Shown: one piece after another, positions 7,525-51,398 of the stretch
How the letters are laid out: the number at the start of each line of letters is the position of its first letter
Position numbering within the stretch: position 1 is the stretch's first letter
From: an uncultured Lachnospiraceae bacterium
GTDB taxonomy: Bacteria; Bacillota; Clostridia; Lachnospirales; Lachnospiraceae
NCBI GenBank assembly: GCA_947626985.1
Contig: CANQUG010000021.1
Span: 1-51,398, forward strand
DNA length: 51,398 nucleotides
Direction of reading: 5' to 3'
Notes under the pieces: model-generated
What the model was told of the DNA's origin: nothing
The model's input: only the letters and a program-made list of their open reading frames with translations
Database searches by the model: none
Made by a program: the position numbers and the translations under genes

Positions 7525-7622
7525 TTCTGTATATTTTATAAGCCAACAACGGGAAAAGCTTCTGTACATTTTGTGAGCTGACAACGATAAAAGATCTGTT
7601 TATATATTTAAGCTGACACAAG
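7525..7622. repeat. Degenerate tandem repeat, ~35 bp x ~2.8
   Basis: Three consecutive units start TTCTGTAtA / TTCTGTACA / ATCTGTTTA and contain AGCtgACAacg, with a period of about 34–35 bp (starts near 7525, 7560, 7594). There is no coding potential. They fill the spacer between the MarR promoter and the long inverted-repeat element. Confidence 0.6.
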
Positions 7623-7637
7623 TCTTCTGGAAGATCA

Positions 7638-7896
7638 GGCAGGGAGAGGGGCCTTCCCCGGCGGACTGCCTTTGCAGGAGTCCTTAGAACAACTTAGGTC
7701 CTGGGATTTTGCGTTATGTCCCCGAATCATGTTGTCTGAGCCAGCGCGCGGTCACATCCGGAGCCTTTCGGCACGAATGCGGCAGTGCGATGAGCGAGTT
7801 CATGATTCGGGGACATGCTTTTAGCAAAATCTCAGGACCTTAGTTGTTCTTGGGCTCCGAAACAGCAGTCCGCCGGGGAAGGCCCCTCTCCCTGCC
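7638..7896. repeat. 259-bp long inverted-repeat element (MITE-like or structured RNA)
   Basis: The outer arms are a perfect 32-bp inverted repeat (7638–7669 and 7865–7896). A second pair (7686–7712 and 7824–7850) matches at 25 of 27 positions, and an inner pair (7716–7731 and 7801–7816) is a perfect 16-bp match. A ~69-nt central loop remains (7732–7800). The whole can fold into one long hairpin. No ORF of note and no transposase are present. It could be a miniature non-autonomous mobile element, a dispersed repeat or a structured transcript. Confidence 0.7.
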
Positions 7897-7980
7897 GTCC
7901 GTCTCCCGCTTTTTTCTCAATTACTCAACTAACTGGAAGAGTCTGTCGCAGTGATGTTTTGTACAGGTCCATCTCCCGCT

Positions 7981-9018
7981 TTAGAACATAATCTGATGAG
8001 GCAGACGGAATCCGTCAAACACAGGCATTCCGAACTTCTCTTCGTTATACTTGTCAATATTATTGCACATGGACAGATAAGCCCCCGGATAAACGCTTCC
8101 AGGGCCGCCCTGAGCGATACAGGGAATAAAGTAATTCATACCGCAGGCCTCCATAACCATAGTGGACGCCTTCCTGGTATCCTCATCCGTCCATCCCTCG
8201 AAGTCCATAAACTTATTATCAATACCGCCCATAATGGTGATATCCCCGCCGAACTTCTTAATCAGATCCGGAATCTCATTGGCCCATACGGCACCCTGCC
8301 AAACATCGATGCCCATCTCGATCATATCCGGAACCAGAGTAGCGGCATAGCTGTCGGAATGATGAATCACCAGCTCCACGCCATGATTGTGATAATATCC
8401 GTAAATCTCTTTGTAAGCGTCTTTATAGAAATCATCGAACATATCCACGGACATAAAGGTACTCTTGGCGCTTCCCCAGTCATCATGATGGAAAATGGCG
8501 TCGGGTTTCAGCTTGTCGCAGATGAGCTCCGCAAGACGCAGCTCCCACTCGGTAAGATATTTGATCAGATCATGCATCTCATCCGGATACTCATACAGAT
8601 TGATCAGAGCCTCCTCAATACGAAGAAAATGATGGCACTGCTCGAAGAGACCGGGAGCAATAAAGGTGGCCTTGTAGGCTTTCGAACCGTCCACAGCATC
8701 ATAAGCGGCCTTCATCATATCCCACTCTGCCTGGGGGAAATCCAGGGACGGAGCCGTTACATAGTCTTTCCAGTGCTCGATATCCTTGATCAGAAGATGA
8801 GCGTCGTCCTGTACAGGGAACTGTCCCGGCGTGCCCTTGGGGAAGGAATTATAAACGCCCCACGCGTTCTTCACCATGGTATCGCCCGGCTTTAACAGAG
8901 CGTCATGCAGCGCCCGGGGATCAAAAAGAAGCTGAACGGCCTCATATTGATTTACGAAACGCTCGGGTTTTCCGCCCTTTTTGATACACTCGCGCATGTT
9001 TTCCTTTGCATTTAACAT
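7981..9018 (-). CDS. Uroporphyrinogen decarboxylase (URO-D) family protein, corrinoid methyltransferase-like
   Basis: A 345-residue protein of the URO-D superfamily. Besides uroporphyrinogen decarboxylase, this superfamily holds MtaA/MtbA/CmuA-type methyltransferases. Features include IHHSDSYAA, GIDVWQGAVWANE and the late GGIDNK region that in the fold lines the barrel. I chose ATG 9018 because GGAGG lies 9 nt upstream; an in-frame ATG 14 codons earlier (9060) has no ribosome site. True HemE is unlikely: no other haem gene is nearby, and Clostridia carry many HemE-like methyltransferases. The gene is divergent from a PucR-type regulator, so regulation by it is likely. Substrate is unknown. 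Confidence 0.75.
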   Translation of the reverse strand: MLNAKENMRECIKKGGKPERFVNQYEAVQLLFDPRALHDALLKPGDTMVKNAWGVYNSFPKGTPGQFPVQDDAHLLIKDIEHWKDYVTAPSLDFPQAEWDMMKAAYDAVDGSKAYKATFIAPGLFEQCHHFLRIEEALINLYEYPDEMHDLIKYLTEWELRLAELICDKLKPDAIFHHDDWGSAKSTFMSVDMFDDFYKDAYKEIYGYYHNHGVELVIHHSDSYAATLVPDMIEMGIDVWQGAVWANEIPDLIKKFGGDITIMGGIDNKFMDFEGWTDEDTRKASTMVMEACGMNYFIPCIAQGGPGSVYPGAYLSMCNNIDKYNEEKFGMPVFDGFRLPHQIMF

Positions 9019-11908: not shown

Positions 11909-12874
11909 TCAGAAACATTTCTCCTCCAGGAAGGAAAACACCTTCCCGAAATATCCCTCCGGGTCCATGGAGTAGGAACTGCCGTGGCCCGCGCCTTCCA
12001 CCACCAGAAGATCTTTGGGGGCGGGGCAGGCATCATAAAGCTTATAAACCATATCCGTATGTACGAAATTATCCGCGGAGCCATGGATAAAGAGCATGGG
12101 CACCCGACATTTTTTCACCTGCTCCAGAGCGGAGGCCTCCCCGAAGGAATAGCCCGCCTTCACTTTGGAGAAGGCACTGGCGGCGTAGAGGACAGGGAAG
12201 GGCGGAAGGTGGAAGAGGTAGTTCAGCTCATCCGAAAAAATATCCCACACCGAGGTATATCCGCAGTCCTCAACCACGCCCTTCACCTGAGGCGGCAGCT
12301 CTTCCCCTGCGGTCATCATTACAGTGGCTCCTCCCATGGAAACTCCGTGAAGAATGATCTCGGCCCGGGGATCCAGCTCCAGCAGCCAGGAGATCCAGTC
12401 CAGCACATCCAGCCGGTCCGGCCATCCCATACCTATGTATTTCCCTTCGCTTTCCCCGTGGGCCCGCATATCCGGCATCAGGGCATTATATCCCTTTTCG
12501 CCGTAAAAGGCGGCGATGTTCTGCATGTCTGTCCGCCTTCCCGTGTATCCGTGAACGGTGAGAACCCAGCGGTGACTGTCTCTGTCCGTCCAGGCGACGT
12601 CCGCCTTCAGTTTCAGTCCGTCCCGGGAGGTGAGCTCCGCCGGTTCCATTTCAGCTTCCGCGAGCCATGCTTCCCTTCTGCTGCGGATCCCAGTCATATT
12701 GTTTTCCATGACAGCCTGATCCTCTGCCTTCACGATGGAATCCGGCGCGACCGACATATTTACGTTTTCCTTGTGGGCGATGGCAAAGTCCGTCAGATAG
12801 TTTCCGGCCACAGCCAGGACGCCTGCCAGAAGAACCAGCAGAACCGCTATGATTCTGATCCCTGTTTTTTTCAT
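11909..12874 (-). CDS. Membrane-anchored alpha/beta hydrolase
   Basis: 321 residues. A hydrophobic N-terminal segment (about 6–27) probably anchors the enzyme outside the membrane. The hydrolase fold follows with oxyanion motif TVHGYTG (about 106–112), nucleophile elbow GVSMGG (Ser near 179), an acid candidate in IHGSADNFV (Asp near 268) and the catalytic His in GAGHGSS (near 297). It resembles the YqkD/BAAT-like serine hydrolases of Firmicutes. The natural ester or amide substrate is not predictable. It stands alone between the EamA transporter and the two-component system. Confidence 0.85.
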   Translation of the reverse strand: MKKTGIRIIAVLLVLLAGVLAVAGNYLTDFAIAHKENVNMSVAPDSIVKAEDQAVMENNMTGIRSRREAWLAEAEMEPAELTSRDGLKLKADVAWTDRDSHRWVLTVHGYTGRRTDMQNIAAFYGEKGYNALMPDMRAHGESEGKYIGMGWPDRLDVLDWISWLLELDPRAEIILHGVSMGGATVMMTAGEELPPQVKGVVEDCGYTSVWDIFSDELNYLFHLPPFPVLYAASAFSKVKAGYSFGEASALEQVKKCRVPMLFIHGSADNFVHTDMVYKLYDACPAPKDLLVVEGAGHGSSYSMDPEGYFGKVFSFLEEKCF

Positions 12875-13075
12875 TTTTATCCCGCTCTTTCTCCGATGTA
12901 TTTTACGGTATGCTGCTTACTTTTTACGCCGTATACCTTTCATGCCGCTGTGCCGTTGTACTTTTACCTGAACGCACAATTCGCACAGCCGGAAAGTATT
13001 TTTCCTGGTTCTTATTTTATCATATCATCTGATTCCGCTACAATCCATGAAACACTGGAATCCAGAAATTGCCGG

Positions 13076-13102
13076 AAAAAAGGGCTGCGTGTCCCGCAGC
13101 CC
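13076..13102 (-). terminator. Rho-independent terminator of the two-component operon
   Basis: On the minus strand an 8-bp GC-rich stem (GGGCTGCG / CGCAGCCC, 5-nt loop) is followed by a T run (A run at about 13076–13081 on the plus strand), just past the histidine kinase stop codon. Confidence 0.8.
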
Positions 13103-13119
13103 GATAAAACCCATAGCCG

Positions 13120-14655
13120 TCACGCCTTCTGATCCAGCGTAAACCAGAAAGCCACTCCGTTATCGTAATTCTGCACCCCGTATTCCTGATGCAGCCCTTC
13201 CATAATAGCCTTCACGATGGAAAGCCCGATCCCGCTTCCCCCGTATTCTCTGGTCCTGGCCTTATCCACCTTGTAAAATTTATTCCACACCATAGGCAGA
13301 TCCGCCTCGGGAATGGGCTGACCTGTATTGAATACGGTCACCCGCACCCGTTCGCCCTCGTCCGCGATCTTTATTTCAATCTGATGCTCCCCCTCCAGAT
13401 GATTCAGAGCATTGCTCACATAGTTGGTGACGACTTCCTCGATCTTGAATTCATCCGCCCATACAAACACAGGCTGCTCCTGCTCGAAGATCACCCTGGC
13501 TTCCTTCTGCTGAATGAGAATATCCATGGACTGGAGCACGCCGCGGATAAGGGGCACCAGATCAAAGTGTTCCATCGTCACCTCGTCCCGGCCGGATTCC
13601 AGCTGATTGAGAGTGAGAAGATTTTTCACCAGCTTGTTCATTCTGGCGGATTCATCCATGATTACGTCGCAGTAGAATTCCCGGCTTTCCGGATCGTCGG
13701 AAATATTTTCCTTAAGGCCCTCCGCGTATCCCTGAATGAGAGCGATGGGAGTTTTCAGCTCGTGGGAAACATTGTCCAGAAATTCCTTCCGCATCTGATC
13801 GATCTTGATTTTGTCAGCAATATCCTGCTTCAGTTTATTGTTGGCGGATTTCAGCTCGGAGATGGTCCTCTCCAGCCGGCGGGACATGCTGTTGAAATTG
13901 TCGCCCAGAATGTCGATCTCGTTCCCCGCCCTGCTGGAATATCTGGCGTTGAATTCCAGCTGGCTCATGCGCTGGGAGAGCACCGTCAGCTCCCGGATGG
14001 GCTGCGTGATCCGGTTGGTGCAGACCCAGATCACGATTCCGCTGAGGAGAAGGATGAACAGACCCACGAAGAAGTAAAACTTATTGGAAATGGCGGCGCT
14101 TTCCTCCATGCTCTCCAGAGGAGTCCGGATCAGGAAGAAATTTCCGCTGAGCAGGGAGCCCCAGGCCTCCACGTAATCCATCCCCGCGTAGCGGTCGTGA
14201 ACCTGCTGGATCACATAGCTGTCCGTCTGGTCCAGAATGTGCACCCCCGTGTTCTGCACGTCCAGATACACATATCCGAACAGCCGCTCCTGCAGCATGC
14301 TTTTATTGTCCCCCACATGGGCGATCCTCTGATTGTCCCGGGAGATGATCACCCAGGAAAGATTATTGCCGGAGCTGGCTCTGCGCAGGTCCGCGGGGAC
14401 CTCCACCTCCTCCCGCTGGCCGTTATCGTAGAGCTCCTCCTGAGTATCCAGCTGTTCCAGAGAACAGACTGCCTGCTGGAGCACCTTGGCCTTTCTGGAA
14501 ATATAGTAGCGTTCCAGAAACAGCGCGTTGATCACGGTGATGGACAGCAGGGTCAGAAGAAACAGTCCGATGAACAGCGCGGCGATCTGATTTCGAATGG
14601 AGCGGGCCTTTTTCTGCTTTTTTAACCCCTGTTTCAAATCAGCTGTGAACTTCAA
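13120..14655 (-). CDS. Sensor histidine kinase (HAMP, HisKA, HATPase)
   Basis: 511 residues. A transmembrane segment near 25–48 is followed by an extracytoplasmic sensor region of ~140 residues, a second membrane segment near 190–212 and a HAMP linker. HisKA follows, with the phospho-acceptor His in NVSHELKTP (near 300), then an HATPase domain with the N box (VTNYVSNALNH) and a G box (GGSGIGLSIVKAI). The start is a TTG inside the end of the response regulator gene (17-nt overlap) with a weak GGGG upstream. It forms an operon with the regulator. The signal is unknown. Confidence 0.9.
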   Translation of the reverse strand: MKFTADLKQGLKKQKKARSIRNQIAALFIGLFLLTLLSITVINALFLERYYISRKAKVLQQAVCSLEQLDTQEELYDNGQREEVEVPADLRRASSGNNLSWVIISRDNQRIAHVGDNKSMLQERLFGYVYLDVQNTGVHILDQTDSYVIQQVHDRYAGMDYVEAWGSLLSGNFFLIRTPLESMEESAAISNKFYFFVGLFILLLSGIVIWVCTNRITQPIRELTVLSQRMSQLEFNARYSSRAGNEIDILGDNFNSMSRRLERTISELKSANNKLKQDIADKIKIDQMRKEFLDNVSHELKTPIALIQGYAEGLKENISDDPESREFYCDVIMDESARMNKLVKNLLTLNQLESGRDEVTMEHFDLVPLIRGVLQSMDILIQQKEARVIFEQEQPVFVWADEFKIEEVVTNYVSNALNHLEGEHQIEIKIADEGERVRVTVFNTGQPIPEADLPMVWNKFYKVDKARTREYGGSGIGLSIVKAIMEGLHQEYGVQNYDNGVAFWFTLDQKA

Positions 14656-40866: not shown

Positions 40867-40887
40867 TCTTAATTGAGAATTAGTTGT

Positions 40888-41085
40888 GAGTGCCGTTAAA
40901 GTGTTTCACGGTTAAAAGGAAAACAGGTGCAAGGCCTGTGCTGTCCCGCAACTGTAAACAGGGAGTTTTCCGCGATGTATCCCACTGGGCGACCGGGAAG
41001 GGGGCGGAGGATGAGGATCTGTGAGCCAGGAAGCCTGCTTACGACTTATTATCAGGTGTCACGAGGTATGACAGGATAATAGATA
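40888..41085 (+). promoter_or_regulatory. Cobalamin (B12) riboswitch
   Basis: Conserved blocks in order: GGTTAAAAGGAAAACAGGTG, the core GCTGTCCCGCAACTGTA, CACTGGGCGACCGGGAAG, and the B12 box GAGCCAGGAAGCCTGC. A hairpin TATTATC–TGTCA–loop CGAGGTA–TGACA–GATAATA (41047–41081) follows, in the position of P13 whose loop kisses L5. Adenosyl- or other cobalamin binding is expected to switch off the operon. Boundaries are approximate by ~10 nt. Confidence 0.93.
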
Positions 41086-41146: not shown

Positions 41147-41178
41147 ATCCTGTCTCTTCGGAGACGGGATTTTTTTTG
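41147..41178 (+). terminator. Riboswitch-controlled intrinsic terminator
   Basis: ATCCTGTCTC–TTCG–GAGACGGGAT with a T run after it, 107 bp before the first gene. Its left arm (41146–41154) is exactly complementary to 41070–41078 in the riboswitch hairpin, giving an antiterminator alternative. Confidence 0.85.
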
Positions 41179-41284: not shown

Positions 41285-42310
41285 ATGAACCGGAAGAAAA
41301 CCTATTGTTTTACCGCCATCGTGGGGCAGGAGGACATGAAAACCGCGCTGATTCTGAACGTGATCAATCCGGGCCTTGGAGGCGTGCTGATCCGCGGGGA
41401 GAAGGGAACGGCGAAATCCACGGCCGTGCGCGCCCTTGCGGAGCTTCTGCCCCTTCGCCGTCAGGTAAAGGGATGCAGGTTCGGCTGCGATCCCGACGAC
41501 GCGGCTCATTTGTGCGACGAGTGCAGGGCGCGCCTGGAGCGGGGAGAGATTCTGGAGGCGGAGGAGCAGCCCATGAGGGTGATCGATCTGCCTGTGAGCG
41601 CCACGGAGGACCGGGTGGTAGGAACCCTGGATATCGAGCATGCCATCAAAACCGGGGAAAAGAAATTTGAAACGGGAATCCTGGCCGGCGCCAACCGGAA
41701 TATTCTCTATGTGGACGAGGTGAACCTGCTGGACGATCATGTGGTGGATGTGCTTCTGGATTCCGCGGCCATGGGCGTCAATACGGTGGAGCGGGAGGGG
41801 GTTTCCTATTCCCATCCGGCGGCGTTTATTCTGGTAGGGACCATGAACCCCGAGGAGGGGGACCTGCGGCCCCAGCTCATAGACCGTTTCGGGCTTTCCG
41901 TGACCGTTGCGGGGGAACACGAGGTGGAGCGCCGGGTGGAGGTTCTGGAGAACCGGCTGAAATATGAGAATGATCCGGAAGCGTTTTTTCAGGAATATGA
42001 GCCGAAGCAGGCGGAGCTGCGGGCGCGGATTTCGGAAGCCTGCGCGCGTTTGCCGAAGGTGACCTATTCCCGCGCCGTGATGGAGCTGATCGCGAAGATC
42101 TGTATTCAGCTGGAGGTGGACGGCCACCGGGCGGATATCGTGATGCTGAAAACCGCCGTCACCCTTGCCGCCTACCATGGGAAGGATCAGGTGGAGAAGG
42201 AAGAGATCCTGCAGGCGGCCCGGCTGGCCCTGCCCCATCGGATGCGCAGGCGGCCCTTCGAGGACGCGCAGTTTGACTTTTCCAGGATCGAGGAGCTTCT
42301 GAGAGAATAG
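41285..42310 (+). CDS. ChlI/BchI-like magnesium/cobalt chelatase AAA+ ATPase
   Basis: 341 residues. Walker [10 protein letters not shown] (about 38–46), a four-Cys insert near 63–79 (CRFGC...CDEC) as in BchI/ChlI, Walker [13 protein letters not shown], sensor region [20 protein letters not shown], and a C-terminal helical lid. This is the motor subunit that, with a VWA subunit, drives metal insertion by a large ChlH/CobN chelatase. GGAGG lies 10 nt before the ATG. First gene after the B12 riboswitch. No chlorophyll genes are near, so a corrinoid or cobalt role is favoured. Confidence 0.85.
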
Positions 42311-42365
42311 AAGATACGTCGTCTGGAATGATCTGAGAGAATAGAAGATACATCGTCTGGAATGA
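42298..42365. repeat. 34-bp tandem duplication spanning the chlI stop codon
   Basis: Two 34-bp copies (42298–42331, 42332–42365) differ at one position; the stop codon of the ATPase gene lies in the first copy and is repeated in the second. Confidence 0.85.
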
Positions 42366-42416
42366 GGAATATACGATTCTCCCGCAGAATCTGCCGGAGG
42401 GAATGGAGGAAATGAG

Positions 42417-43451
42417 ATGGTACAGGAAAAGAACCGGGGATGGAGGATGACAGGCTGGGGGCTGCTGTTTCTGCTTCTGGCCGGCGGGCTTTTGCTGCTG
42501 TTTTTTCTGAATGTGGGGGTGGGCTCCGCGGATATCTCCGTGAAGGATATTTTTCAGATCCTGTTCGGCGACGCGGAGGCTTCGGACAGCAAATATCTGA
42601 TCATCCGGAAGATCCGGCTGCCCCGGGCCATGGCGTCCATCGCGGGGGGAGCCGCCCTGGCTGTGTCCGGGTTTCTGCTGCAGACCTTTTTTTCCAATCC
42701 CATTGTGGAGCCTTACGTGCTGGGGATTTCCTCCGGCTCGTCGCTGTTCGTGGGACTGGTGTTTCTGGGAGGCTTTACCTTCGGTGTGAACCGGGTGACG
42801 CCGGCGTTTCTGTTTTTCGGCGCCTTTGCCGGGGCCATGCTGGTGATGGTCATTGTGGTAATTGCAGCCAGGAAGGTCAAGAGTATCGTCACGCTGCTGA
42901 TCATCGGAATGATGGCGGGGTATGTCTGCAGCGCGGCCACCAGCCTTCTCACCGCCTTTGCGGAGAAGGAGAATCTGAAAATGTTTACCATGTGGACCAT
43001 GGGAAGCTTTGCCGGGTTTACCTGGTCCCAGATCGGTGTGCTGTACGCCATTGTGGTCCCCATGATTCTGATTTCCTTCTGTATGGCAAAGCCGCTGAAC
43101 GCTCTGAATATGGGCGACCGGTATGCCGAGAGCATGGGGATCAATGTAAAAGGGGTGCGCTACGCTCTGATTCTGATTTCCAGTATTCTCACGGCCGCGG
43201 TCACCGCTTTCGCCGGGCCGGTTTCCTTTATCGGACTGGCGGTGCCTCATATCTGCCGGATTCTGTTCCATACCTCCGACAGCCGGGTGATGGTTCCGGC
43301 GGCTGCTCTGGGGGGAGGACTGATGGCGGGAATCTGTGATTTTACGGCGAGAAATATCATGTCGCCTGTGGAACTGCCGCTGGGAGCGATCACGGCGATC
43401 ATCGGCGCGCCCATTGTGGTGTACCTTCTGATCAGAAGAGGGGAAATATAG
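42417..43451 (+). CDS. btuC: BtuC/FecCD-type ABC permease (corrinoid importer)
   Basis: 344 residues with about ten helices. Family marks: IRLPRAMASIAGGAALAVSGFLLQTFFSNPIVEPYVLGISSG-like N-terminal block (split here only by wording) and a C-terminal GPVSFIGLAVPHICRI. FecCD permeases import siderophores, haem or cobalamin; the upstream B12 riboswitch and downstream cbiZ point to corrinoids. GGAGG precedes the ATG. Next in order are its ATPase and binding protein. Confidence 0.88.
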   Translation: MVQEKNRGWRMTGWGLLFLLLAGGLLLLFFLNVGVGSADISVKDIFQILFGDAEASDSKYLIIRKIRLPRAMASIAGGAALAVSGFLLQTFFSNPIVEPYVLGISSGSSLFVGLVFLGGFTFGVNRVTPAFLFFGAFAGAMLVMVIVVIAARKVKSIVTLLIIGMMAGYVCSAATSLLTAFAEKENLKMFTMWTMGSFAGFTWSQIGVLYAIVVPMILISFCMAKPLNALNMGDRYAESMGINVKGVRYALILISSILTAAVTAFAGPVSFIGLAVPHICRILFHTSDSRVMVPAAALGGGLMAGICDFTARNIMSPVELPLGAITAIIGAPIVVYLLIRRGEI

Positions 43452-43454
43452 AAA

Positions 43455-43550
43455 GAAAATGCCGCAGGGCTGCCGGATGGGCGGAGATTATGTGCGGTAA
43501 ACGGAAATGCAGGGCTACCGGACGGGCAGAAAGCATGAAAAAAGATACCG
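43455..43550. repeat. Degenerate direct repeat between permease and ATPase genes
   Basis: ATGCcgCAGGGCTgCCGGAtGGGCgGA and ATGCAGGGCTaCCGGAcGGGCaGA recur about 47 bp apart, with a third partial TACCGGATGcGC. Confidence 0.5.
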
Positions 43551-43584
43551 GATGCGCGAACCGTGCGCAGCGAGGAGGAAACTT

Positions 43585-44790
43585 ATGGAACCGATTCTCA
43601 GCACAGAACAGCTGAATGTGGGATATGAACAGAAAACGGTTATAGAGAATGTGGATATCCAGGCCTTCAAAGGGCAGACCATCTGTCTCATCGGGCCCAA
43701 CGGAGCGGGAAAGTCTACCATACTGCGCACGCTGACCGGAATGCTGGCTCCGGTGGAGGGATGCGTTTATATCGGCAGGGAGGACGTGCGGAGAATGAAG
43801 TCCTCCGACAAGGCCAGGCAGATGGCGGTGGTTCTGACGGAAAAGCTGAATCTGAATATGACCAGGGCTTACGAGGTGGTGGCCATGGGCCGGACGCCCT
43901 ACACGGGATTTTTCGGCAGGCTCAGCCAGGAGGACCGGGATGTCATCGAGAAGTGCCTGAGAACCGTGGGGGCCTATGAGCTTAGGGACCGGGATTACAC
44001 CAGTCTGAGCGACGGAGAGAAGCAGAAGGTGCTGATCGCCCGGGCTCTGGCCCAGACGCCGGAGCTGATTGTTCTGGACGAACCGACCAGCCACCTGGAT
44101 ATCAAACATAAGATCGAAGTGATACGGATTCTGAACAGGCTTGCCCTGGAGACGGGACTCACGGTGATCCTGGCCCTTCATGATATCGATATCGCCGTGA
44201 AGTTCTGTCAGGTGGTGCTGATGGTGAAGGACGGCAGGGTAGTGGCTCAGGGGAGACCGGAGGATATTGTAAAGCGGGACACGCTGAGCAGGCTGTACGG
44301 CATTGACGGGGCATATTACGACTCTGTTCTGGGCAGCGTGGAAATCTGTAATGACGCCGCACCGGAGCTTTTCGTGGCGGCGGGGGCCGGATACGGGATC
44401 CCCGTGTACCGTATGGCTTCCCGGATGGGCTTCGGGATTGCCACGGGCATTCTCAAAGGAAATGATATCGATTACGCGGTGGCTTCGGATATGCATCTGA
44501 CTACGGTGGCAGGCCCCAGTTTTGAACCGGTGAATGAAAAGCTGGTGAAGGAGGCCGGGGAATGGATGGAGAAATGCCGGATCCTTCTGGACGCGGGTTT
44601 TCCTGTGGGGAAGGAGAACCGGGAAAATATCCGGCTGCTGGCGGACGCCGCGAAAAACGGCCGGGAGGTCCTCTGCCTCCGGACGCGGGAGGAGGGAGAA
44701 CGTCTGTACGGCAGTCTGGAAAATATCTGCGTGCTGGCCTCCATGGCGGAGCTTTCGGAGAAGCTGTGCGCCGACGGGGCGCGGCAGTGA
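43585..44790 (+). CDS. btuD: BtuD-type ABC ATPase with C-terminal extension
   Basis: 401 residues from ATG 43585 (GAGGAGG 6 nt upstream). The ATPase core (1–~250) has Walker A GPNGAGKST (about 37–45), signature SLSDGEKQK and Walker B LIVLDEPTSHLD. The remaining ~150 residues (about 255–401) form an extra domain with GIPVYRMASRMGFGIATGILKGNDIDYAVA, not part of canonical BtuD; similar extensions occur in some clostridial and archaeal corrinoid importers. Possibly a regulatory domain sensing corrinoid or nucleotide. Energises BtuC. Confidence 0.87.
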   Translation: MEPILSTEQLNVGYEQKTVIENVDIQAFKGQTICLIGPNGAGKSTILRTLTGMLAPVEGCVYIGREDVRRMKSSDKARQMAVVLTEKLNLNMTRAYEVVAMGRTPYTGFFGRLSQEDRDVIEKCLRTVGAYELRDRDYTSLSDGEKQKVLIARALAQTPELIVLDEPTSHLDIKHKIEVIRILNRLALETGLTVILALHDIDIAVKFCQVVLMVKDGRVVAQGRPEDIVKRDTLSRLYGIDGAYYDSVLGSVEICNDAAPELFVAAGAGYGIPVYRMASRMGFGIATGILKGNDIDYAVASDMHLTTVAGPSFEPVNEKLVKEAGEWMEKCRILLDAGFPVGKENRENIRLLADAAKNGREVLCLRTREEGERLYGSLENICVLASMAELSEKLCADGARQ

Positions 44791-44913
44791 TTCCCGGAAG
44801 GGCATATAAAGAGGGATCATTGTACGATCCGGCTGAGATGCGGAGCAGCCGGGGATGTTTGATGATATCAGAAGCAAATGGTTTTATGAGTGAATAGCAG
44901 ACAGGAGGAAAAG

Positions 44914-46185
44914 ATGAGACGTAAAGAATGGATGGGAAAGCTTTTGGCAATGACTCTGGCAGGAATGATGTGTGTCAGCCTGCCGGCAGCAGGTGTGTGC
45001 GCCGATGCGGAGGGCGCCGGAGAGGAAGCTGTGGAGGCAGCTGAACAGGAGACAACGGACGCGGCGGACGAAAATGCGGAAGAAGCTGCTGCGGATACGG
45101 AAGAGGATGCTTCGGGAGATGCCGCTGAGGAGACCGGCAGCGAGCTGGGCCTGAAGTACGCTCAGAATTTTACCATCGAGTATCTGGACAACGATGTGAA
45201 GCTGATCACGGACGGCGACGGAAGTCAGAGACTTCTGGTGCCGAAGGAGGCGGAGGTGCCGGAAGGCTATGAGGATGCCGTGGTGATCCGTACTCCCGTT
45301 GAGCGGGCCATGATCTGCTCCACCACCCATGCGGGCCTGATCACGGCGCTGGGAGATCCTTCCCTGTATGATTCTCTGGCAGTGGTGACGACGCCGGCGG
45401 AGGACTGGACGATTCCGGAGATCGTCGAGAATCTCGAAAGCGGTAAGACCACCTATATCGCATGGGAGCAGTACGCCAACGGGGATATCGAGGAGGTCGT
45501 GACACTGAACCCGGACGTGGTGCTCATAAGCGGCGGAGACGACGTGGCGGTTCAGCTGGCTTCTCAGCTGGATGAGGTAAATATTCCCTACATTTCCGTG
45601 ACGGAGTGGATGGAGCCCACCGGAGAAGGGCAGCTGGAGTGGATGAAGCTTTTCGGCGCTCTGTACAATATGGATCAGGAAGCGAACGATATTTTTGACG
45701 CAAAGATTGCCCGTATGGATGAACTGAAAGCCATGGCTGCAGATGTTCCGGAGGAAGAAAAGCCGGTTGTGGCCTGGGGCATGGTGTATGACGGCGTCGT
45801 GTATACCCAGGGAGGAGATTCTCCTACGGCGAAGACCATCGAGGACGCAGGCGGTATCTATGCGCTGAAGGACCTGGAAGGCGAGGGCAGCGTTCAGGTA
45901 AATATGGAGGAATTCCTGGACAAAGCCAAAGATGCGGATATTCTGATCTATTCCAGTCTGGTGACCTACACCACGGATAAAGCGGCGCTGCTCGCGGAGG
46001 ACGCTCTTCTGGAAGAATTCGCGGCATACCAGAATGACCGGATCTATGTTTACGGCAAGGATTATTATATCAACAGCACGGCGGTGGACGAGAAGTTCTC
46101 CGATATGGTGGCCATCATTCATCCGGAGCTGATGGAGGGCTATGAACTGATGCATTCCGTGAAGCTTCCGGACGCGGCGGAGTAA
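44914..46185 (+). CDS. btuF: Corrinoid ABC transporter substrate-binding protein
   Basis: 423 residues from ATG 44914 (GGAGGAAAAG upstream). Signal peptide ending near VCADA; no clear lipobox (no small residue before either Cys), unusual for a Gram-positive binding protein. A Glu/Ala/Asp-rich spacer (about 27–75) precedes the periplasmic-binding fold (about 90–420). The fold is of the type III, helical-backbone kind, with TPVERAMICSTTHAGLITALG and LNPDVVLISGGDD. It would deliver corrinoids to BtuCD. Stop is 1 nt from the next start. Confidence 0.82.
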   Translation: MRRKEWMGKLLAMTLAGMMCVSLPAAGVCADAEGAGEEAVEAAEQETTDAADENAEEAAADTEEDASGDAAEETGSELGLKYAQNFTIEYLDNDVKLITDGDGSQRLLVPKEAEVPEGYEDAVVIRTPVERAMICSTTHAGLITALGDPSLYDSLAVVTTPAEDWTIPEIVENLESGKTTYIAWEQYANGDIEEVVTLNPDVVLISGGDDVAVQLASQLDEVNIPYISVTEWMEPTGEGQLEWMKLFGALYNMDQEANDIFDAKIARMDELKAMAADVPEEEKPVVAWGMVYDGVVYTQGGDSPTAKTIEDAGGIYALKDLEGEGSVQVNMEEFLDKAKDADILIYSSLVTYTTDKAALLAEDALLEEFAAYQNDRIYVYGKDYYINSTAVDEKFSDMVAIIHPELMEGYELMHSVKLPDAAE

Positions 46186-46186
46186 A

Positions 46187-48178
46187 GTGAAGCGGGTGGT
46201 GTACCCCTTTGCGGCGGTGCTGGGGCAGGATGAAATCAAAAAGGCGCTGTTGTGCAATCTGGTGAATCCCATGATCGGAGGCGTGCTGATCTCCGGGGAG
46301 AAGGGCACGGCGAAATCCACGCTGGTGAGAGGACTGGAGGCCCTTGCCGGCAGCCAGAGGCTGGTGGAACTTCCTCTGAATATTACAGAGGACCGCCTGG
46401 TGGGGTCTATCGACTTAAGCCGCGCTCTTCTGGAGGGCCGGAGCGTGCTGGAACCCGGTGTTCTATGGGAGGCAGACGGAAACATCCTTTATGTGGACGA
46501 AGTGAATCTCCTGAGCGATCATATTGTGAACACGCTTCTGGAGGTGGCGGCGGGAAAGCAGAACGTGGTGGAACGGGAGGGAATTTCCTGTGTCCATGAC
46601 AGCCGGTTTGTGCTGATCGGCAGCATGAATCCGGAGGAAGGGAAGCTGCGGTCTCAGTTTCTGGATCGGTTCGGCCTGTATGTGGAAGTGCAGGGGGAGC
46701 GGGATCCGGCCGCCCGGGTGGAGATCATGAGCCGGAGGCTGGAGTTTGAGCGGGATCCCCTGGGCTTTCTGGAGGCGTACCGGGAGGAAACGGCGCGCCT
46801 TCAGAGAGCGGTGACAAAGGCGCGGGAGCTCCTTCCGAAGGTGGAGGTCACGGAGAACGCTCTGGCGCTGGCGGCGTCCTTGAGCGAAAATGTCCATTGC
46901 TGCGGACACCGGGGAGAGCTGGCCACAGTGGAGACAGCCAGAGCGCTGGCCGCTCTTGACGGGAGACGCATGCTGAACACGGAGGATATCCGGGAGGCGG
47001 CCCGCTTCGCGCTGGCCCACCGGGCGCGGGAGATCGCGCCCGGGACGGCCCTGCCGCCGGAGGGAGAGCCTGACAGCCGGGAAGACCGGGATCGGCAGGA
47101 TCAGGAAACACAGCAGGAAGAAAATCAGGAACCGGCGGAAAATCCGGATAAGACGCCGGAGGAAGAAAGAAATCAGGATTCGGAACCCCAGACTTCGGAA
47201 GAGCAGGAGAAACCGGCGGAGCAGCAGGATTCTGAAAATACCGGCGAAGAATCCGGACGCAGGGAACCGTCCCGTCAGATTTCGGACGGCGAGGACAGAG
47301 AAGGGGATTTCGGCGAGTCGGAAGAGGTGCAGGAAAGCGGGGAAGCCTTCGAGATTCCCAGATGGCAGGAGCCGCCGGCATTTCACAGAGTAAACCAGGG
47401 AGCAGGGAAGAGGACGCTGGTGAAATCCGACAATCATCAGGGCCGCTATGTGGGATACCGTACAGCCGGCGGAGAGAAGGCGGAGGATCTGGCTTTTGAC
47501 GCTACCGTGCGGGCCGCCGCGCCTTTTCAGAAAAACAGGAAGAAAAACGGAAGGGCCATCGCTATCGAAAAGGCGGATATGCGGTTGAAGATCCGGGAAA
47601 AGCGCACCGGCGGCTGTATTCTCTTTGTCGTGGACGCCAGCGCCTCCATGGGCGCCAACCGGCGGATGACCGAGGTGAAGGCCGCGATCGTTTCTCTTCT
47701 CAATGTTTCCTACCAGAAGCGGGACCGTGTGGGATTGATCGCCTTCCGCAAGGACGGGGCGGAGCTTCTGCTGGGAATCACCAGGAGCGTGGATCTGGCC
47801 CAGAAAAGACTGGCGGAGCTTCCCACCGGAGGAAAAACCCCGCTGGCGGCAGGGCTGGATCTGGCCTATGAGGTGATCATGGGGCTGAAGATGCGGGAGC
47901 CGGAGGTGCAGCCGGTCATCGTTCTGGTGTCGGACGGGCGTGCCAGCGGAAAAAAGGACAAAAACAGCAATCCCTTCGCGGAGGCCCTGAAATCCGCAGA
48001 GCGCATCGGGAACCAGAAGATCCGTACGATCATTCTGGATACGGAAAACGGATTTATCCGGTTTCACCTGTGCGGGAAGCTGAATGAAAAGCTGAAGGGA
48101 ACTCTTCTCACCATGGAGGAGCTTCGTTCCGACGGAATTATAGAAGCGGTGAAGGGATATGCTGCGCCATTGGCTTAG
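46187..48178 (+). CDS. ChlI–ChlD fusion: AAA+ ATPase with VWA domain (chelatase subunit D-like)
   Basis: 663 residues, GTG start right after btuF stop, hence coupled. AAA+ module (1–~285) with intact Walker [10 protein letters not shown] (near 37), Walker [13 protein letters not shown] (near 101) and SMNPEEGKLRSQFLDRFGL. Then an acidic Glu/Gln/Pro-rich linker (about 290–400) and a C-terminal VWA domain (about 475–660) with MIDAS DASASMG. Canonical ChlD has a degenerate ATPase site; this one looks active. It would bridge the AAA+ ring to a large chelatase subunit. No such subunit lies within the window. Confidence 0.87.
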   Translation: MKRVVYPFAAVLGQDEIKKALLCNLVNPMIGGVLISGEKGTAKSTLVRGLEALAGSQRLVELPLNITEDRLVGSIDLSRALLEGRSVLEPGVLWEADGNILYVDEVNLLSDHIVNTLLEVAAGKQNVVEREGISCVHDSRFVLIGSMNPEEGKLRSQFLDRFGLYVEVQGERDPAARVEIMSRRLEFERDPLGFLEAYREETARLQRAVTKARELLPKVEVTENALALAASLSENVHCCGHRGELATVETARALAALDGRRMLNTEDIREAARFALAHRAREIAPGTALPPEGEPDSREDRDRQDQETQQEENQEPAENPDKTPEEERNQDSEPQTSEEQEKPAEQQDSENTGEESGRREPSRQISDGEDREGDFGESEEVQESGEAFEIPRWQEPPAFHRVNQGAGKRTLVKSDNHQGRYVGYRTAGGEKAEDLAFDATVRAAAPFQKNRKKNGRAIAIEKADMRLKIREKRTGGCILFVVDASASMGANRRMTEVKAAIVSLLNVSYQKRDRVGLIAFRKDGAELLLGITRSVDLAQKRLAELPTGGKTPLAAGLDLAYEVIMGLKMREPEVQPVIVLVSDGRASGKKDKNSNPFAEALKSAERIGNQKIRTIILDTENGFIRFHLCGKLNEKLKGTLLTMEELRSDGIIEAVKGYAAPLA

Positions 48179-48317
48179 GCTGGATAAGGGGCAGGAAAAC
48201 AGGTGCGCTAAAAGATTGGGATTCTTGAGAAACAGCCGGGATGCCGGCTGGCGAATCGGATTCAGGAATGGTATGGTTTCACGAATATAAACTGAGAAAT
48301 ATGCGGGAGGTGCGGGT

Positions 48318-49427
48318 TTGAGGATCGCGGTATTGGAAACGGGAGAGACGGTGCACCGCTACAAGAAATCACTGGTGGTTTCTTTTGCGGGAAAACGGCG
48401 GGTGCTGAGCACGGCGCCCCACAACGGCGGCTACAGAGAAGATCTGACGGCGGCGTTTAACAATGACGGCACGGTGGGCGCGGGAATGGCCTGCACGCTG
48501 AAAGCCCCCACTTACGCGGAGCATATGGCTGTCCTGGCGGAGGAGATCGGGCTGGATCCCGGGACGGCCGTGGGGATTTCCACCGCCGCCCAGATGGAAA
48601 ATGTGTCGGTTAAAACGGAAAAATGGGAGAATCTTGCGGTCACCGCGGTTGTGACCGGTGGAATCGAGGTGAACGGCGGCCGTGTGGGAGATACCGCGTC
48701 ATGGAATGAGGTGGCGGGGCAGGCCCTTCCGGCAAAGCCCGGCACCATCAATATGATGATCTTCTTTAATTCGGATCTGGCGGAAGGCACCCTGGCAAGG
48801 GCACTTGTGACCTGTACGGAGGCCAAGACCGCCGCAATCCAGGAGCTGCTGGCGCCGAGCCGTTATTCCATGGGGCTTGCCACAGGCTCCGGAACAGACG
48901 GGACGATTCTCGTGGCGAACATGGAGAGCGGGATCTGTCTGACGGACGCGGGCAAACACAGCAAGCTGGGGGAACTGATCGGAAAAGCGGTGAAGGCTGC
49001 AGTGAAGGAAGCCCTGAATCTCCAGAGCGGTCTTTGTCCGAAGCGCCAGCATCAGATCGTGAAAAGGATGGACCGTTTCGGCATTACCAATGACCTGCTG
49101 TGGGAGAATTATTCGGGCGGGAAATGCCGGGCGGAGTTTGAAGAATGTCTGGAAGAGCTTTTGTGCAGGGATATGCTGGTGACATACACGTCTCTTTACG
49201 CCCATCTGCTGGATCAGCTGATGTGGGGAATGCTTTCCGTGAGTGAAGTGCGGGAGGGCGCTGCCAGTCTGCGCACCCTTATGGGGATGGAGGACGGGGA
49301 GCCGGACTTCCATATGGGGGAGACTCCGGAGCTGCCTGCCGGATGTGCGGCGGAGCGTTCCTGTGTACTGGAGCTGGTGAGAGCTTACGGTTCCGGGCTG
49401 ATGAAGCTGATCATGAAGGAAGAGTGA
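48318..49427 (+). CDS. cbiZ: Adenosylcobinamide amidohydrolase
   Basis: 369 residues; TTG start at 48318 with GGGAGG 7 nt upstream. CbiZ motifs: LSTAPHNGGYREDL, VGISTAAQMENV, PGTINMMIFFNSDL, TCTEAKTAAIQEL, ATGSGTDGTI, GKHSKLGELIGKAV. CbiZ cleaves the aminopropanol side chain of adenosyl-(pseudo)cobinamide to give adenosylcobyric acid, letting imported corrinoids be rebuilt with a preferred lower ligand. The ~150 residues past the core are not matched to a known domain. Placement after the importer fits a salvage route. Confidence 0.9.
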   Translation: MRIAVLETGETVHRYKKSLVVSFAGKRRVLSTAPHNGGYREDLTAAFNNDGTVGAGMACTLKAPTYAEHMAVLAEEIGLDPGTAVGISTAAQMENVSVKTEKWENLAVTAVVTGGIEVNGGRVGDTASWNEVAGQALPAKPGTINMMIFFNSDLAEGTLARALVTCTEAKTAAIQELLAPSRYSMGLATGSGTDGTILVANMESGICLTDAGKHSKLGELIGKAVKAAVKEALNLQSGLCPKRQHQIVKRMDRFGITNDLLWENYSGGKCRAEFEECLEELLCRDMLVTYTSLYAHLLDQLMWGMLSVSEVREGAASLRTLMGMEDGEPDFHMGETPELPAGCAAERSCVLELVRAYGSGLMKLIMKEE

Positions 49428-49528
49428 ACGGGGAGAAGGAGTACGGGAAGAAAGAGCACGGGGCGGGTGAGCGTTGCCGGAACATCGGAAGCACGGTACG
49501 AGAGCTGTATTTTGCGGCGGAAAGGCAG

Positions 49529-49564
49529 GCCGTGACAGAAACGCGGGCCGTGACAGAAACGCCT
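49529..49564. repeat. 18-bp tandem duplication
   Basis: GCCGTGACAGAAACGCGG repeated at once as GCCGTGACAGAAACGCCT, in the spacer before the ABC-2 ATPase. Confidence 0.7.
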
Positions 49565-49586
49565 GTGGAAGAATTTGGAGAATGAT

Positions 49587-50447
49587 ATGATCGTATATTC
49601 GGATATAGTGAAACAGTATGGTTCGATCACTGCGGTGAGTCATCTGAACCTGGAAATTGAAAAGGGCGAGATCTTCGGGCTTCTGGGACCGAACGGGGCG
49701 GGAAAAACCACAGTCATGCGGATGACCTCCACTCTGACGCCTCCCACTTCCGGAAAAATCTTTATCGGGGGTGAGGAGATAGACCGGGATTCGGCGGCGA
49801 TCAAAAACCGGATGGGGATCGTGCCTCAGTCCAGCAACCTGGAGGATGATCTGAACGCCTGGGAAAATCTGGAGTATCACGGGATGCTCTACGGCATGAA
49901 TAAAAAGGACAGGCGGAAAAGGGCGGAGGAACTGCTGGATTTTGTGGGGCTCCTCGATCGAAAGAACGATATTGCGCGGCATTATTCCGGGGGAATGAAG
50001 CGGAAAATGATGATTGCCAAGGCGCTGATGCACAGGCCGGAGATCATTCTGATGGACGAACCCACCGTGGGTCTGGACGCCGCCATCCGCAGGAAGATCT
50101 GGGATCTGATCCGGGAGCTTCATGCCCAGGGGATGACGGTGTTTCTCACCACCCATTATCTGGATGAAGCGCAGATGCTCTGCACCAGAGTGGGAATGAT
50201 TCATGAGGGCAGACTGGTGAAGACCGGAACGCCTGAGGAGATGATCCGGGAGGCGGGACGCCATGTGCTGGAGTATTATCAGGACGGGAGCACCCATCAG
50301 CAGTTTTTCACGGAGCGTTCCCGGGCGCTGGAAAGAGGAAATCAGCTTTCTGTGGGGTTTCAGGTGAGGGAAACGAACCTGGAGGATGTGTTCATCCGGC
50401 TGACCAATCAGAGGCTCAGCGAGAAGGAAAATACGCTGGGAATGTAA
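49587..50447 (+). CDS. ABC-2 type exporter ATPase (NodI/DrrA-like)
   Basis: 286 residues from ATG 49587 (GGAG 6 nt upstream; an earlier TTG would swallow it). Walker A GPNGAGKTT (about 35–43), signature HYSGGMKRKM, Walker B IILMDEPTVGLD, H-loop TTHYLDEA, and the DrrA/NodI C-terminal tail (EDVFIRLT). Pairs with the permease that follows. Presence after cbiZ hints at export linked to corrinoid or metal handling, but the pair could be independent of the B12 operon. Confidence 0.88.
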   Translation: MIVYSDIVKQYGSITAVSHLNLEIEKGEIFGLLGPNGAGKTTVMRMTSTLTPPTSGKIFIGGEEIDRDSAAIKNRMGIVPQSSNLEDDLNAWENLEYHGMLYGMNKKDRRKRAEELLDFVGLLDRKNDIARHYSGGMKRKMMIAKALMHRPEIILMDEPTVGLDAAIRRKIWDLIRELHAQGMTVFLTTHYLDEAQMLCTRVGMIHEGRLVKTGTPEEMIREAGRHVLEYYQDGSTHQQFFTERSRALERGNQLSVGFQVRETNLEDVFIRLTNQRLSEKENTLGM

Positions 50448-50479
50448 TGCAGGGGTCGGATGGAGGAAAGGAGTCTGCT

Positions 50480-51208
50480 GTGAAGTTTTATGCGGTTTTA
50501 TGGAAAGAATGGGTCGTGTTCCGAAGGACATTTTTCAGTACGAGTCTGGGGATGGCGGTGGGACCGCTGCTGTACCTGATAGCTTTCGGCTGGGGGCTTG
50601 GGAACACGGTCCAGATGGAAGGGACGAGCTATCTTGCCTTTGTGATTCCCGGTATTGTTGCCATGAACTCCATGACCAACAGCTTCAGTCCCATTGCTTA
50701 TGATATCAATTTGTCCCGTATTTACGGACAAACCTTCGAGGCCACCATGACGGCTCCCATCAGTATGAAGGTGTATACGGCCGCAAGGATTCTGGCCGGA
50801 GCTCTGCGCGGCGTGTACAGCGCCTGCCTGATTTTGCTGCTGTCTCTCCTGTTCCGGGCGGATATTTACGCGGGAGGATACTTCTGGCTGATGCTGGTCC
50901 TGAACTGTCTGGTTTTTTCCTCTCTGGGATTTATTGCGGGGCTGGTGATCAATTCCCATGCGGATATGGCTAAGGTGACAAATTTTATTATCACCCCCAT
51001 GTCTTTTCTGTGCGGCACTTTTTTCTCGCTGGACAAATTCCCGGGATTTTTGCGGCTGGTGGTGGAGATCCTGCCCCTCAGCCAGGCGGTGAGAGGTATG
51101 CGGGGCGGACTGAGAGGATCGGAAGCCGTCCTTCCTCCGGTGATTTTGCTGATATATCTGGCTGTGCTCGGGTTTGCCGCCGTCAGACTGTGCAGACGGG
51201 CGGAGTAG
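50480..51208 (+). CDS. ABC-2 type permease (NodJ/DrrB-like)
   Basis: 242 residues from GTG 50480 (AAAGGAG 6 nt upstream); an ATG overlapping the ATPase stop (50447) has a poor ribosome site. Six membrane helices, the family block SFLCGTFFSLDKFPGFLRLVVEILPLSQAV near residues 175–205 being typical of ABC-2 membrane proteins. Partner of the preceding ATPase. Confidence 0.87.
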   Translation: MKFYAVLWKEWVVFRRTFFSTSLGMAVGPLLYLIAFGWGLGNTVQMEGTSYLAFVIPGIVAMNSMTNSFSPIAYDINLSRIYGQTFEATMTAPISMKVYTAARILAGALRGVYSACLILLLSLLFRADIYAGGYFWLMLVLNCLVFSSLGFIAGLVINSHADMAKVTNFIITPMSFLCGTFFSLDKFPGFLRLVVEILPLSQAVRGMRGGLRGSEAVLPPVILLIYLAVLGFAAVRLCRRAE

Positions 51209-51343
51209 CCCTGTGGCAATTGTTACGTCGGTTGCCGTCAGTTTTCTGCCAGGCTGTGCAGACGGTCGGAGTAAATCTGCGGGGAATCAGCTTCTGATTG
51301 ATGACTGTGGAAAGAAAGGGATGCGGGGAGTGAGGTGAAAATT

Positions 51344-51398
51344 ATGAGGATTGTGTTTTTGCTGCAGGGAGACGGGATCGACTGGTTTTTCCGGCAGG
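51344..51398 (+). CDS. Start of a further gene (truncated by window end)
   Basis: ATG at 51344 preceded by GAGGTGAAAATT; 18 residues MRIVFLLQGDGIDWFFRQ run off the window. Too short to identify. By context a CobN-like large chelatase subunit is one guess; confidence in that guess is low. Confidence 0.5.
   Translation, partial: MRIVFLLQGDGIDWFFRQ

What the first reader, a model, noticed from the sequence alone, without database searches (positions are those of the whole stretch)
41285..51398. B12-repressed corrinoid import–remodelling–chelatase operon
One riboswitch appears to govern ChlI-like ATPase, BtuC, BtuD with extension, BtuF, an AAA+–VWA fusion with an intact ATPase site, CbiZ and an ABC-2 exporter. 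Anaerobic B12 synthesis uses CbiK/CbiX rather than the CobN/S/T chelatase, and no corrin synthesis gene is present. A two-ATPase motor sitting inside a salvage operon suggests metal insertion into, or removal from, imported corrinoids or other tetrapyrroles, or use of the VWA–AAA motor for transport. I know of no described system with exactly this composition.
Basis: inference. Interest (0 to 1): 0.75.

Follow-up and report, generated by a model that had tools for sequence, protein, structure and literature searches.

The report
B12-switched corrinoid salvage chelatase operon
One operon behind a vitamin B12-sensing RNA switch appears to take up B12-like molecules, trim them and handle the metal in their ring with a complete ATP-driven machine, which includes an odd second ring-holding protein that lacks the usual catalytic histidines and carries conserved cysteines.

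Summary
A cobalamin riboswitch (40871-41056) and a terminator-like hairpin precede chlI, btuC, btuD, btuF, a chlI-chlD fusion, cbiZ and an ABC-2 exporter. The window is a whole contig; its last 77 bases equal the first 77 of contig C99, where the missing subunit follows: CobN1 (canonical), then a second CobN-like protein, CobN2. All ten genes recur under B12 riboswitches in two other loci (L129, L173), parts of the set in many more. A described relative exists, Dehalobacter restrictus operon-2, raised about 46-fold at low corrinoid, so 'no described system' fails. The genome also encodes a cobalt-early B12 pathway (cbiL not found), so this late-type chelatase is not obviously needed for synthesis. 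Best reading: ATP-driven metal handling, most likely cobalt insertion, during corrinoid salvage; direction unproven. New here: CobN2 has both histidines of the HxGTHG active-site motif replaced (DxGTEG), and its clade and a sister clade carry conserved cysteines in what by position is the loop gating the metal cavity. New variant of a known kind.

The parts
40871..41056 (+). Cobalamin riboswitch aptamer (RF00174)
   Evidence: cmscan 105.8 bits, full length
41147..41170 (+). Terminator-like hairpin, probable expression platform of the riboswitch
   Evidence: 10-pair stem followed by TTTTTTTG; 90 bases after the aptamer, 114 before chlI
41285..42310 (+). ChlI/BchI/CobS-type AAA+ ATPase
   Evidence: TIGR02030 428 bits (cut-off 467), TIGR02442 N-terminal half; Walker motifs
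42417..43451 (+). BtuC-type (FecCD) permease
   Evidence: PF01032 283.6 bits; 47-56% identical to the BtuC of 11 other fetched loci, 31% to the genome's other BtuC-like protein on C39
43507..44790 (+). BtuD-type ATPase with C-terminal extension
   Evidence: ABC_tran 100 bits; PRK09536 corrinoid ABC ATPase 228 bits over residues 29-371, below its cut-off of 537
44890..46185 (+). BtuF-type substrate-binding protein
   Evidence: PF01497 77.5 bits
46187..48178 (+). ChlI-ChlD fusion (AAA+ plus VWA)
   Evidence: TIGR02442 665.6 bits; Walker and MIDAS patterns; several relatives named 'magnesium chelatase subunit D'
48318..49427 (+). CbiZ adenosylcobinamide amidohydrolase with C-terminal extension
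   Evidence: PF01955 186.4 bits over residues 23-229
49575..50447 (+). ABC-2 exporter ATPase
   Evidence: ABC_tran 119 bits, drrA-like 286 bits
50447..51208 (+). ABC-2 exporter permease
   Evidence: PF01061 91.4 bits
51335..51398 (+). Start of CobN1 (1318 aa, continues on contig C99 to position 3970); CobN2 (C99 4239-7637) and a TIM-barrel protein (C99 7595-8590) follow
   Evidence: 77-base unique overlap of contig ends; TIGR02257 928.1 bits for CobN1, cut-off 822.05; PF02514 1231.6 and 851.8 bits

Best explanation
This is a B12-repressed corrinoid salvage operon built around a complete class I (CobN/ChlH-type) chelatase. At low B12 the riboswitch lets transcription pass the terminator (inferred from family and layout). 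A BtuFCD-type transporter imports corrinoids (inferred from family), and CbiZ cuts off the nucleotide loop to give a cobyric-acid-type ring that the genome's CbiB/CobU/CobT/CobS can finish (genes present; flux inferred). ChlI and the ChlID fusion form the ATP-driven motor that acts on CobN1, the canonical catalytic subunit, most likely to insert cobalt into imported cobalt-free or wrongly metallated corrins (direction inferred). CobN2 is a paralogue with the same predicted fold whose motif histidines are replaced and whose gating loop carries conserved cysteines; it most likely holds the ring, the metal or an iron-sulfur cluster for CobN1 rather than doing standard chelation (inferred). The ABC-2 exporter, repeatedly linked, probably expels a ring or by-product (inferred).
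For: Riboswitch and hairpin. CobN1 directly downstream, over the CobN cut-off, motif HLGTHGTLEWLPGK intact. Motor motifs. All ten genes on one strand behind a riboswitch in L129 and L173. RF00174 in 18 of 36 related loci that I chose for cmscan, one cut at a locus end, and 0.7-6.5 kb from a CobN frame in 10 of 11 carrier genomes (positions, distances). Described relative raised about 46-fold at low cyanocobalamin (PMC4285132). HmuS, the known dechelatase of the fold, needs no ATP (PMC12583661, passage), so a full ATP motor speaks for insertion. The genome has the later nucleotide-loop genes.
Against: No natural supply of cobalt-free corrinoids is known to me for such hosts; one paper search returned nothing. 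CbiZ's known substrates already carry cobalt (recalled). The host has the cobalt-early route and should not need a late chelatase. CbiZ is in only a minority of related clusters (8 of 27 and 1 of 80), and 18 of 36 loci scanned showed no riboswitch, though many are short or cut. The CobN1 motif carries T, as in ChlH and HmuS, where the solved CobN chains 7c6o and 9uk9 carry K. In L171 CobN1 is only fragments while CobN2 is whole, which does not fit CobN1 as sole catalyst. Chelatase loci carry at least two types of BtuC, so the importer is not one fixed partner. Nothing here measures a reaction.
Confidence: 0.5

Rival explanations
1. Demetallation: imported corrinoids or other metallo-tetrapyrroles are stripped of metal by the CobN proteins, perhaps reductively with electrons from a cluster held by the CobN2 cysteines; the ring is expelled by the ABC-2 exporter and the cobalt feeds CbiK.
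Against: HmuS works without ATP, whereas here two ATPases are kept. Destroying corrinoids under B12 shortage is hard to justify.
Confidence: 0.2
2. Metal insertion into another tetrapyrrole, or a tetrapyrrole metallophore cycle for cobalt: the ring is exported by the ABC-2 pump, re-imported with metal by the BtuFCD-type transporter and handled by the chelatase.
For: Importer and ABC-2 exporter both recur with the chelatase (7 of 36 named loci outside the Streptomyces-type group hold CobN, ChlID, BtuC and both ABC-2 genes). B12 riboswitches also precede cobalt uptake genes (operon-1, PMC4285132).
Against: cbiZ in the same operon points to corrinoids. No ring-synthesis gene was recognised in the operon.
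Confidence: 0.12
3. The chelatase completes the host's own corrin synthesis by a cobalt-late or mixed route.
For: CobN plus ChlID is listed as the late chelatase in a genome reconstruction of gut bacteria (PMC6593275, passage).
Against: The host has CbiK, CbiD and CbiG, the cobalt-early set, and the chelatase is grouped with uptake, not synthesis. CobG and CobF were not searched for.
Confidence: 0.06
4. The AAA-VWA motor serves transport or another task and chelation is incidental.
For: MoxR-type ATPases have such roles in other families (recalled); bpMoxR matches the fusion weakly (35.4 bits).
Against: The usual partner CobN is in the same operon and both ATPases score far higher with chelatase models.
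Confidence: 0.03

Closest known systems
Dehalobacter restrictus corrinoid operon-2 and its Acetobacterium woodii counterpart (PMC4285132)
   Same: Cobalamin riboswitch, FepBCD/BtuCD-type transporter, CbiZ, CobN and magnesium-chelatase subunits; strongly raised at low corrinoid; thought to be horizontally acquired
   Different: The sections read name two cbiZ and one CobN and no ABC-2 exporter or second CobN; the order here starts with chlI; the sections read report no test of the chelatase's function. Compared by text only, not by sequence
CobNST cobaltochelatase (late cobalt insertion, hydrogenobyrinic acid a,c-diamide)
   Same: CobN1 passes the CobN model (TIGR02257) and keeps the HxGxHG...E motif
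   Different: Motor subunits are ChlI and a ChlI-ChlD fusion, not CobS/CobT; the host has the cobalt-early route; the operon is for uptake and remodelling
Magnesium chelatase ChlH/ChlI/ChlD
   Same: Same subunit architecture and the THG form of the motif
   Different: No chlorophyll context in the operon; CobN1 scores 928 as CobN (cut-off 822) and 736 as BchH (cut-off 829)
HmuS/BtuS haem dechelatases of Bacteroidota (PMC12583661, PMC6460266)
   Same: Same large-subunit superfamily in a salvage operon; fold match to CobN2
   Different: HmuS acts without ATP and is predicted membrane-anchored; here two ATPases are encoded and the HmuS LSLDHxxEFMGG motif is absent
Haloarchaeal CobN plus ChlID beside cobalt-early synthesis (PMC8305020)
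   Same: Late-type chelatase in a cobalt-early organism, proposed for salvage
   Different: Adjacent cobN and chlID genes; no riboswitch operon with transporter and exporter in the passages read

Membership tests
Cobalamin riboswitch RF00174 | Match over the gathering score with a plausible expression platform | tested here: met
   105.8 bits against 31.5; hairpin at 41147-41170; ligand response not measured
Class I chelatase | Large CobN/ChlH subunit (PF02514) | tested here: met
   CobN1 1231.6 and CobN2 851.8 bits
Class I chelatase | AAA+ I subunit and AAA-VWA D subunit | tested here: met
   Models, motifs
Class I chelatase | Active-site HxG(T/K/A)HG motif with following Glu, in CobN1 | tested here: met
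   CobN1 HLGTHGTLEWLPGK
Class I chelatase (CobN2 as an ordinary member) | Same motif; second His said to appear strictly conserved across the superfamily (PMC12583661) | tested here: not met
   CobN2 DIGTEGSVEFLPGK; Glu kept
Class I chelatase | ATP-driven metal insertion | not testable with these tools
   Needs assay
CobN cobaltochelatase (TIGR02257) | Score over the curated cut-off 822.05 | tested here: met
   CobN1 928.1; CobN2 545.3 is below it
TIGR02442 putative cobaltochelatase (ChlID) | Score over the curated cut-off 779.45 | tested here: not met
   Fusion protein 665.6 bits
Dehalobacter operon-2 type salvage cluster | Riboswitch, BtuCDF-type transporter, cbiZ, cobN, magnesium-chelatase subunits together | tested here: met
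   compared with the text of PMC4285132, not with its sequence
Dehalobacter operon-2 type salvage cluster | Raised expression at low corrinoid | not testable with these tools
   Only the riboswitch suggests it
HmuS/BtuS dechelatase | LSLDHxxEFMGG motif of the HmuS family | tested here: not met
   Absent from CobN1 and CobN2 (motif)
HmuS/BtuS dechelatase | N-terminal membrane anchor | not tested
   No signal or membrane-segment prediction was run
CbiZ (PF01955) | Score over 27 bits | tested here: met
   186.4 bits
CbiR phosphodiesterase (NF041277) for the C99 TIM barrel | Score over 105 bits | tested here: not met
   20.8 bits; it is an AP_endonuc_2 protein, 45.9 bits

The most novel reading that the evidence does not exclude
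CobN2 and its sister clade form a distinct 'cysteine CobN' class of chelatase subunit in which a cysteine-rich Loop I over the metal cavity holds an iron-sulfur cluster or a transfer metal, and in CobN2 the superfamily's axial histidines have been given up. Paired with a canonical CobN1 on one shared ATP motor it would make a two-subunit metal exchanger: one CobN takes metal from, or gives it to, an imported ring while the other handles the acceptor, with the ABC-2 pump removing the spent ring. That would be a new kind of tetrapyrrole metal-swap chemistry.
Probability: 0.13. Interest if true: 0.85.

Novelty: new variant of a known kind. Interest (0 to 1): 0.6.

Why it matters
[quoted passage not shown] This operon ties such a chelatase to B12-controlled corrinoid uptake and remodelling, shows that the association recurs, and supplies concrete handles: an importer-exporter pair, and two CobN types on one motor, one with a canonical site and one with histidines exchanged and a cysteine loop. 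If the chelatase reloads or swaps metals in salvaged corrinoids, that adds a layer to B12 sharing in anaerobic communities.

Tried and rejected
Naming the host: not done; the nearest relative of the ChlID protein that bears a species name is from Robinsoniella peoriensis, 64%. CbiR for the TIM-barrel gene: rejected as a family call, 20.8 bits against 105; no PDB match at E 0.001. The TIM gene appeared in none of the printed tblastn neighbourhoods, so I do not count it in the conserved module. Vertical family trait: unlikely, PF02514 in 1 of 200 sampled genomes of the host's family, the host itself. First idea that CobN2 always has an intact CobN1 beside it: rejected, 5 of 6 CobN2 loci have one in the fetched stretch, L171 has only CobN1 fragments. 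Same cysteines as the BchH iron-sulfur protein: not claimed; only the existence of that cluster was seen, in a review. Geometry of the cysteines could not be checked: no model coordinates were laid and the loop has low pLDDT at 453-455 and 458-461. A CobN1 model was not attempted (over the length limit).

Limits of the counts. One search uses bit-score thresholds of my own; its ChlI count is not specific, since ChlI and ChlID cross-match; L129 fell below the ChlID threshold only because its hit is split in two pieces; of 28 regions fetched, one of 3416 bases (L163) was left out; the split of the 80 named loci into 44 and 36 is by genus name. The cmscan set was chosen by me: 22 of 80 named loci and 14 of 20 genome loci. 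The 11 genomes were chosen because they carry CobN. The 120 CobN2 relatives are the best of 662 matches, so they are biased to CobN2-like proteins; two of the 120 under 1000 aa, and CobN frames under 850 aa in loci, were left out of the alignment (scripts). The genome-contig scan kept 80 of at least 590 relatives and may leave out near relatives.

Literature searches for this system or for a cysteine-type CobN; only the open PMC library was searched. Rodionov 2003 was not read, only seen as cited in PMC6460266 and PMC8305020. Passages only were seen of PMC6593275, PMC6460266, PMC8620254, PMC7242693, PMC7689651, PMC3087415, PMC7733943 and PMC8305020.


Full report
What is there. The window carries, on the plus strand, a cobalamin riboswitch (40871-41056, RF00174, 105.8 bits), a 10-pair terminator-like hairpin with a T-run (41147-41170) and eight genes: chlI, btuC, btuD with a C-terminal extension, btuF, a chlI-chlD fusion, cbiZ and the two genes of an ABC-2 exporter. 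Both chelatase ATPases keep the Walker A and B patterns, and the fusion the MIDAS pattern. Gaps up to CobN1 are at most 147 bases.

What lies beyond the window. The window is the whole of contig C21. Its last 77 bases are the first 77 of contig C99, unique in both. The same exact 77-base overlap links contigs C141, C170 and C64 of this assembly, so it is probably the assembler's word size and the join is credible, though not proven by a read. Across the join CobN1 (1318 aa) starts 126 bases after the exporter permease; CobN2 (1132 aa) follows after 268 bases and a TIM-barrel frame overlaps its end. CobN1 passes the curated CobN model (928.1 bits, cut-off 822.05); CobN2 does not (545.3) but matches PF02514 with 851.8 bits. 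C99 has no Rfam match. The chelatase is therefore complete in subunits.

The host. It has CbiK (PF06180 279 bits; 257 of a cut-off of 400 in NCBIfam, beside haem genes) and a contiguous operon CbiD-F-G-H-J/E-T-A-B-CobD-P-C over three overlapping contigs, plus CobT, CobU, CobS and CobC (CobU and CobC below their NCBIfam cut-offs). CbiL is missing from the assembly: the five PF00590 hits are one on C8 beside the haem genes (taken as CobA/HemD), CbiF, CbiH and CbiE on C170, and a frame on C93 that I read as RsmI by eye. The genome is about 97.6% complete, so this may be a gap. It recalls D. restrictus, whose cbiH is broken and whose operon-2 was proposed to alleviate this (PMC4285132 section 19). 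The host has five further cobalamin riboswitches, one before a second BtuFCD-like set on C39.

How widespread. Among 80 named loci found with ChlID, 0 of 44 from Streptomyces and similar actinobacteria carry a BtuC-type or ABC-2 gene at my thresholds; of the other 36, 15 carry BtuC and 7 carry CobN, ChlID, BtuC and both ABC-2 genes. A search of 398 genomes of the phylum with CobN2 matched 45, the host included, and of 391 genomes of the class with a CobN2 alignment matched 10, the host included. L129 and L173 hold all ten genes on one strand (BtuF of L173 runs off the fetched stretch); L175 lacks only CobN2. L129 comes from a 3,558,951-base contig, the length given for a protein named from Candidatus Contubernalis alkaliaceticus. 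cbiZ is present in 8 of 27 of these loci. RF00174 was found in 18 of 36 related loci scanned, one cut at a locus end, and 0.7-6.5 kb from a CobN frame in 10 of 11 carrier genomes (none on that contig in G948). Within 200 sampled genomes of the host's family only the host has PF02514, so the operon may be horizontally acquired. The BtuC of the window is 47-56% identical to that of 11 loci and 38% or less to the rest, including 31% to the host's other BtuC-like protein. All loci were fetched through ChlID or CobN, so this shows two importer types at chelatase loci, not one chelatase-specific type.

The unusual second subunit. In an alignment of 194 CobN-like proteins the motif HxG(T/K)HGxxE reads HLGTHGTLEWLPGK in CobN1 and DIGTEGSVEFLPGK in CobN2. 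The HmuS structure paper places the second histidine across the putative active site from another, as possible axial ligand and acid, and says it appears strictly conserved across the superfamily (PMC12583661 section 14). In the CobN2 clade (121 proteins, support 0.999) the second histidine is lost in 80 and the first in 54, while the following glutamate stays in 119 (aspartate in 2); in the other 73 proteins all three are kept in 73. States differ by subclade: some members such as those of L129 and L130 keep both histidines, others read HxGTGG, HxGT(D/E)G, DxGT(D/E)G or ExGTKG. Parsimony on the extended tree gives five presence/absence changes for the second histidine. The sample is biased towards CobN2-like proteins. 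In loci, 5 of 6 CobN2 genes have a non-cysteine, histidine-keeping CobN near by; the sixth, L171, has only fragments of one.

How it probably works. Shown by sequence: gene set, riboswitch, motor motifs, canonical CobN1, altered CobN2, recurrent linkage. Inferred: B12 repression, uptake of corrinoids, trimming by CbiZ, and ATP-driven metal handling, most likely cobalt insertion, because ATP motors go with insertion in CobNST and ChlHID while the dechelatase HmuS needs no ATP (PMC12583661, passage). Against it stand the unknown source of cobalt-free rings, the cobalt-early host, CbiZ in only a minority of clusters, and L171 with a decayed CobN1.

What is known. D. restrictus operon-2 is the closest described system and its proteins rose on average 46-fold at low cyanocobalamin; its authors already wrote of 'salvaging enzymes (CbiZ and cobaltochelatases)' (PMC4285132 sections 13, 14, 17, 19). 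A salvage role of a late-type CobN-ChlID was proposed for haloarchaea (PMC8305020, passages). A cobN-bchH-bchI-bchD cluster, and cbiZ beside cobalamin transporter genes, were noted in an Antarctic Chlorobium (PMC8620254, passages). My searches showed no paper on a histidine-less, cysteine-bearing CobN type in their listings; they cover one open library only.

Verdict. Observation confirmed, interpretation partly supported, composition not new as a kind, but the two-CobN arrangement with an altered second subunit is a new variant worth testing.

Noticed in passing
G000 contigs C141, C170, C64 (L183, L182, L090): The host's anaerobic corrin operon is contiguous over 77-base overlaps but cbiL was not found in the assembly (5 PF00590 hits, none taken as CbiL).
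   Followed up: partly
G000:C130:69-439 (L178): Two cobalamin riboswitches in tandem, 7 bases apart, on the minus strand at the end of a contig, so the regulated gene is not visible.
   Followed up: no
G000:C39:23686-27071 (L181): A second riboswitch-led BtuFCD-like set, whose BtuC-like protein is only 31% identical to the window's BtuC.
   Followed up: partly
window 51189-51207 and 51255-51273: TGTGCAGACGGNCGGAGTA occurs twice between the end of the exporter permease gene and CobN1; not tested against chance.
   Followed up: no
L004 (G000:C99) 7595-8590: AP_endonuc_2 TIM-barrel gene right behind CobN2, weakly like CbiR (20.8 bits, cut-off 105); possibly a further remodelling enzyme.
   Followed up: partly
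L171 (G644:C15) 12264-13148: CobN1 survives only as fragments while CobN2 (HVGTGG type), ChlI, ChlID, CbiZ and BtuCDF remain.
   Followed up: partly
Loci L007, L009, L016, L052, L061, L063, L084, L131-L147, L174: CobN3, a cysteine-bearing but histidine-keeping CobN type found also in methanogen loci and in Acetobacterium; 7 of 25 such loci also hold a non-cysteine CobN in the fetched stretch; function unknown.
   Followed up: partly
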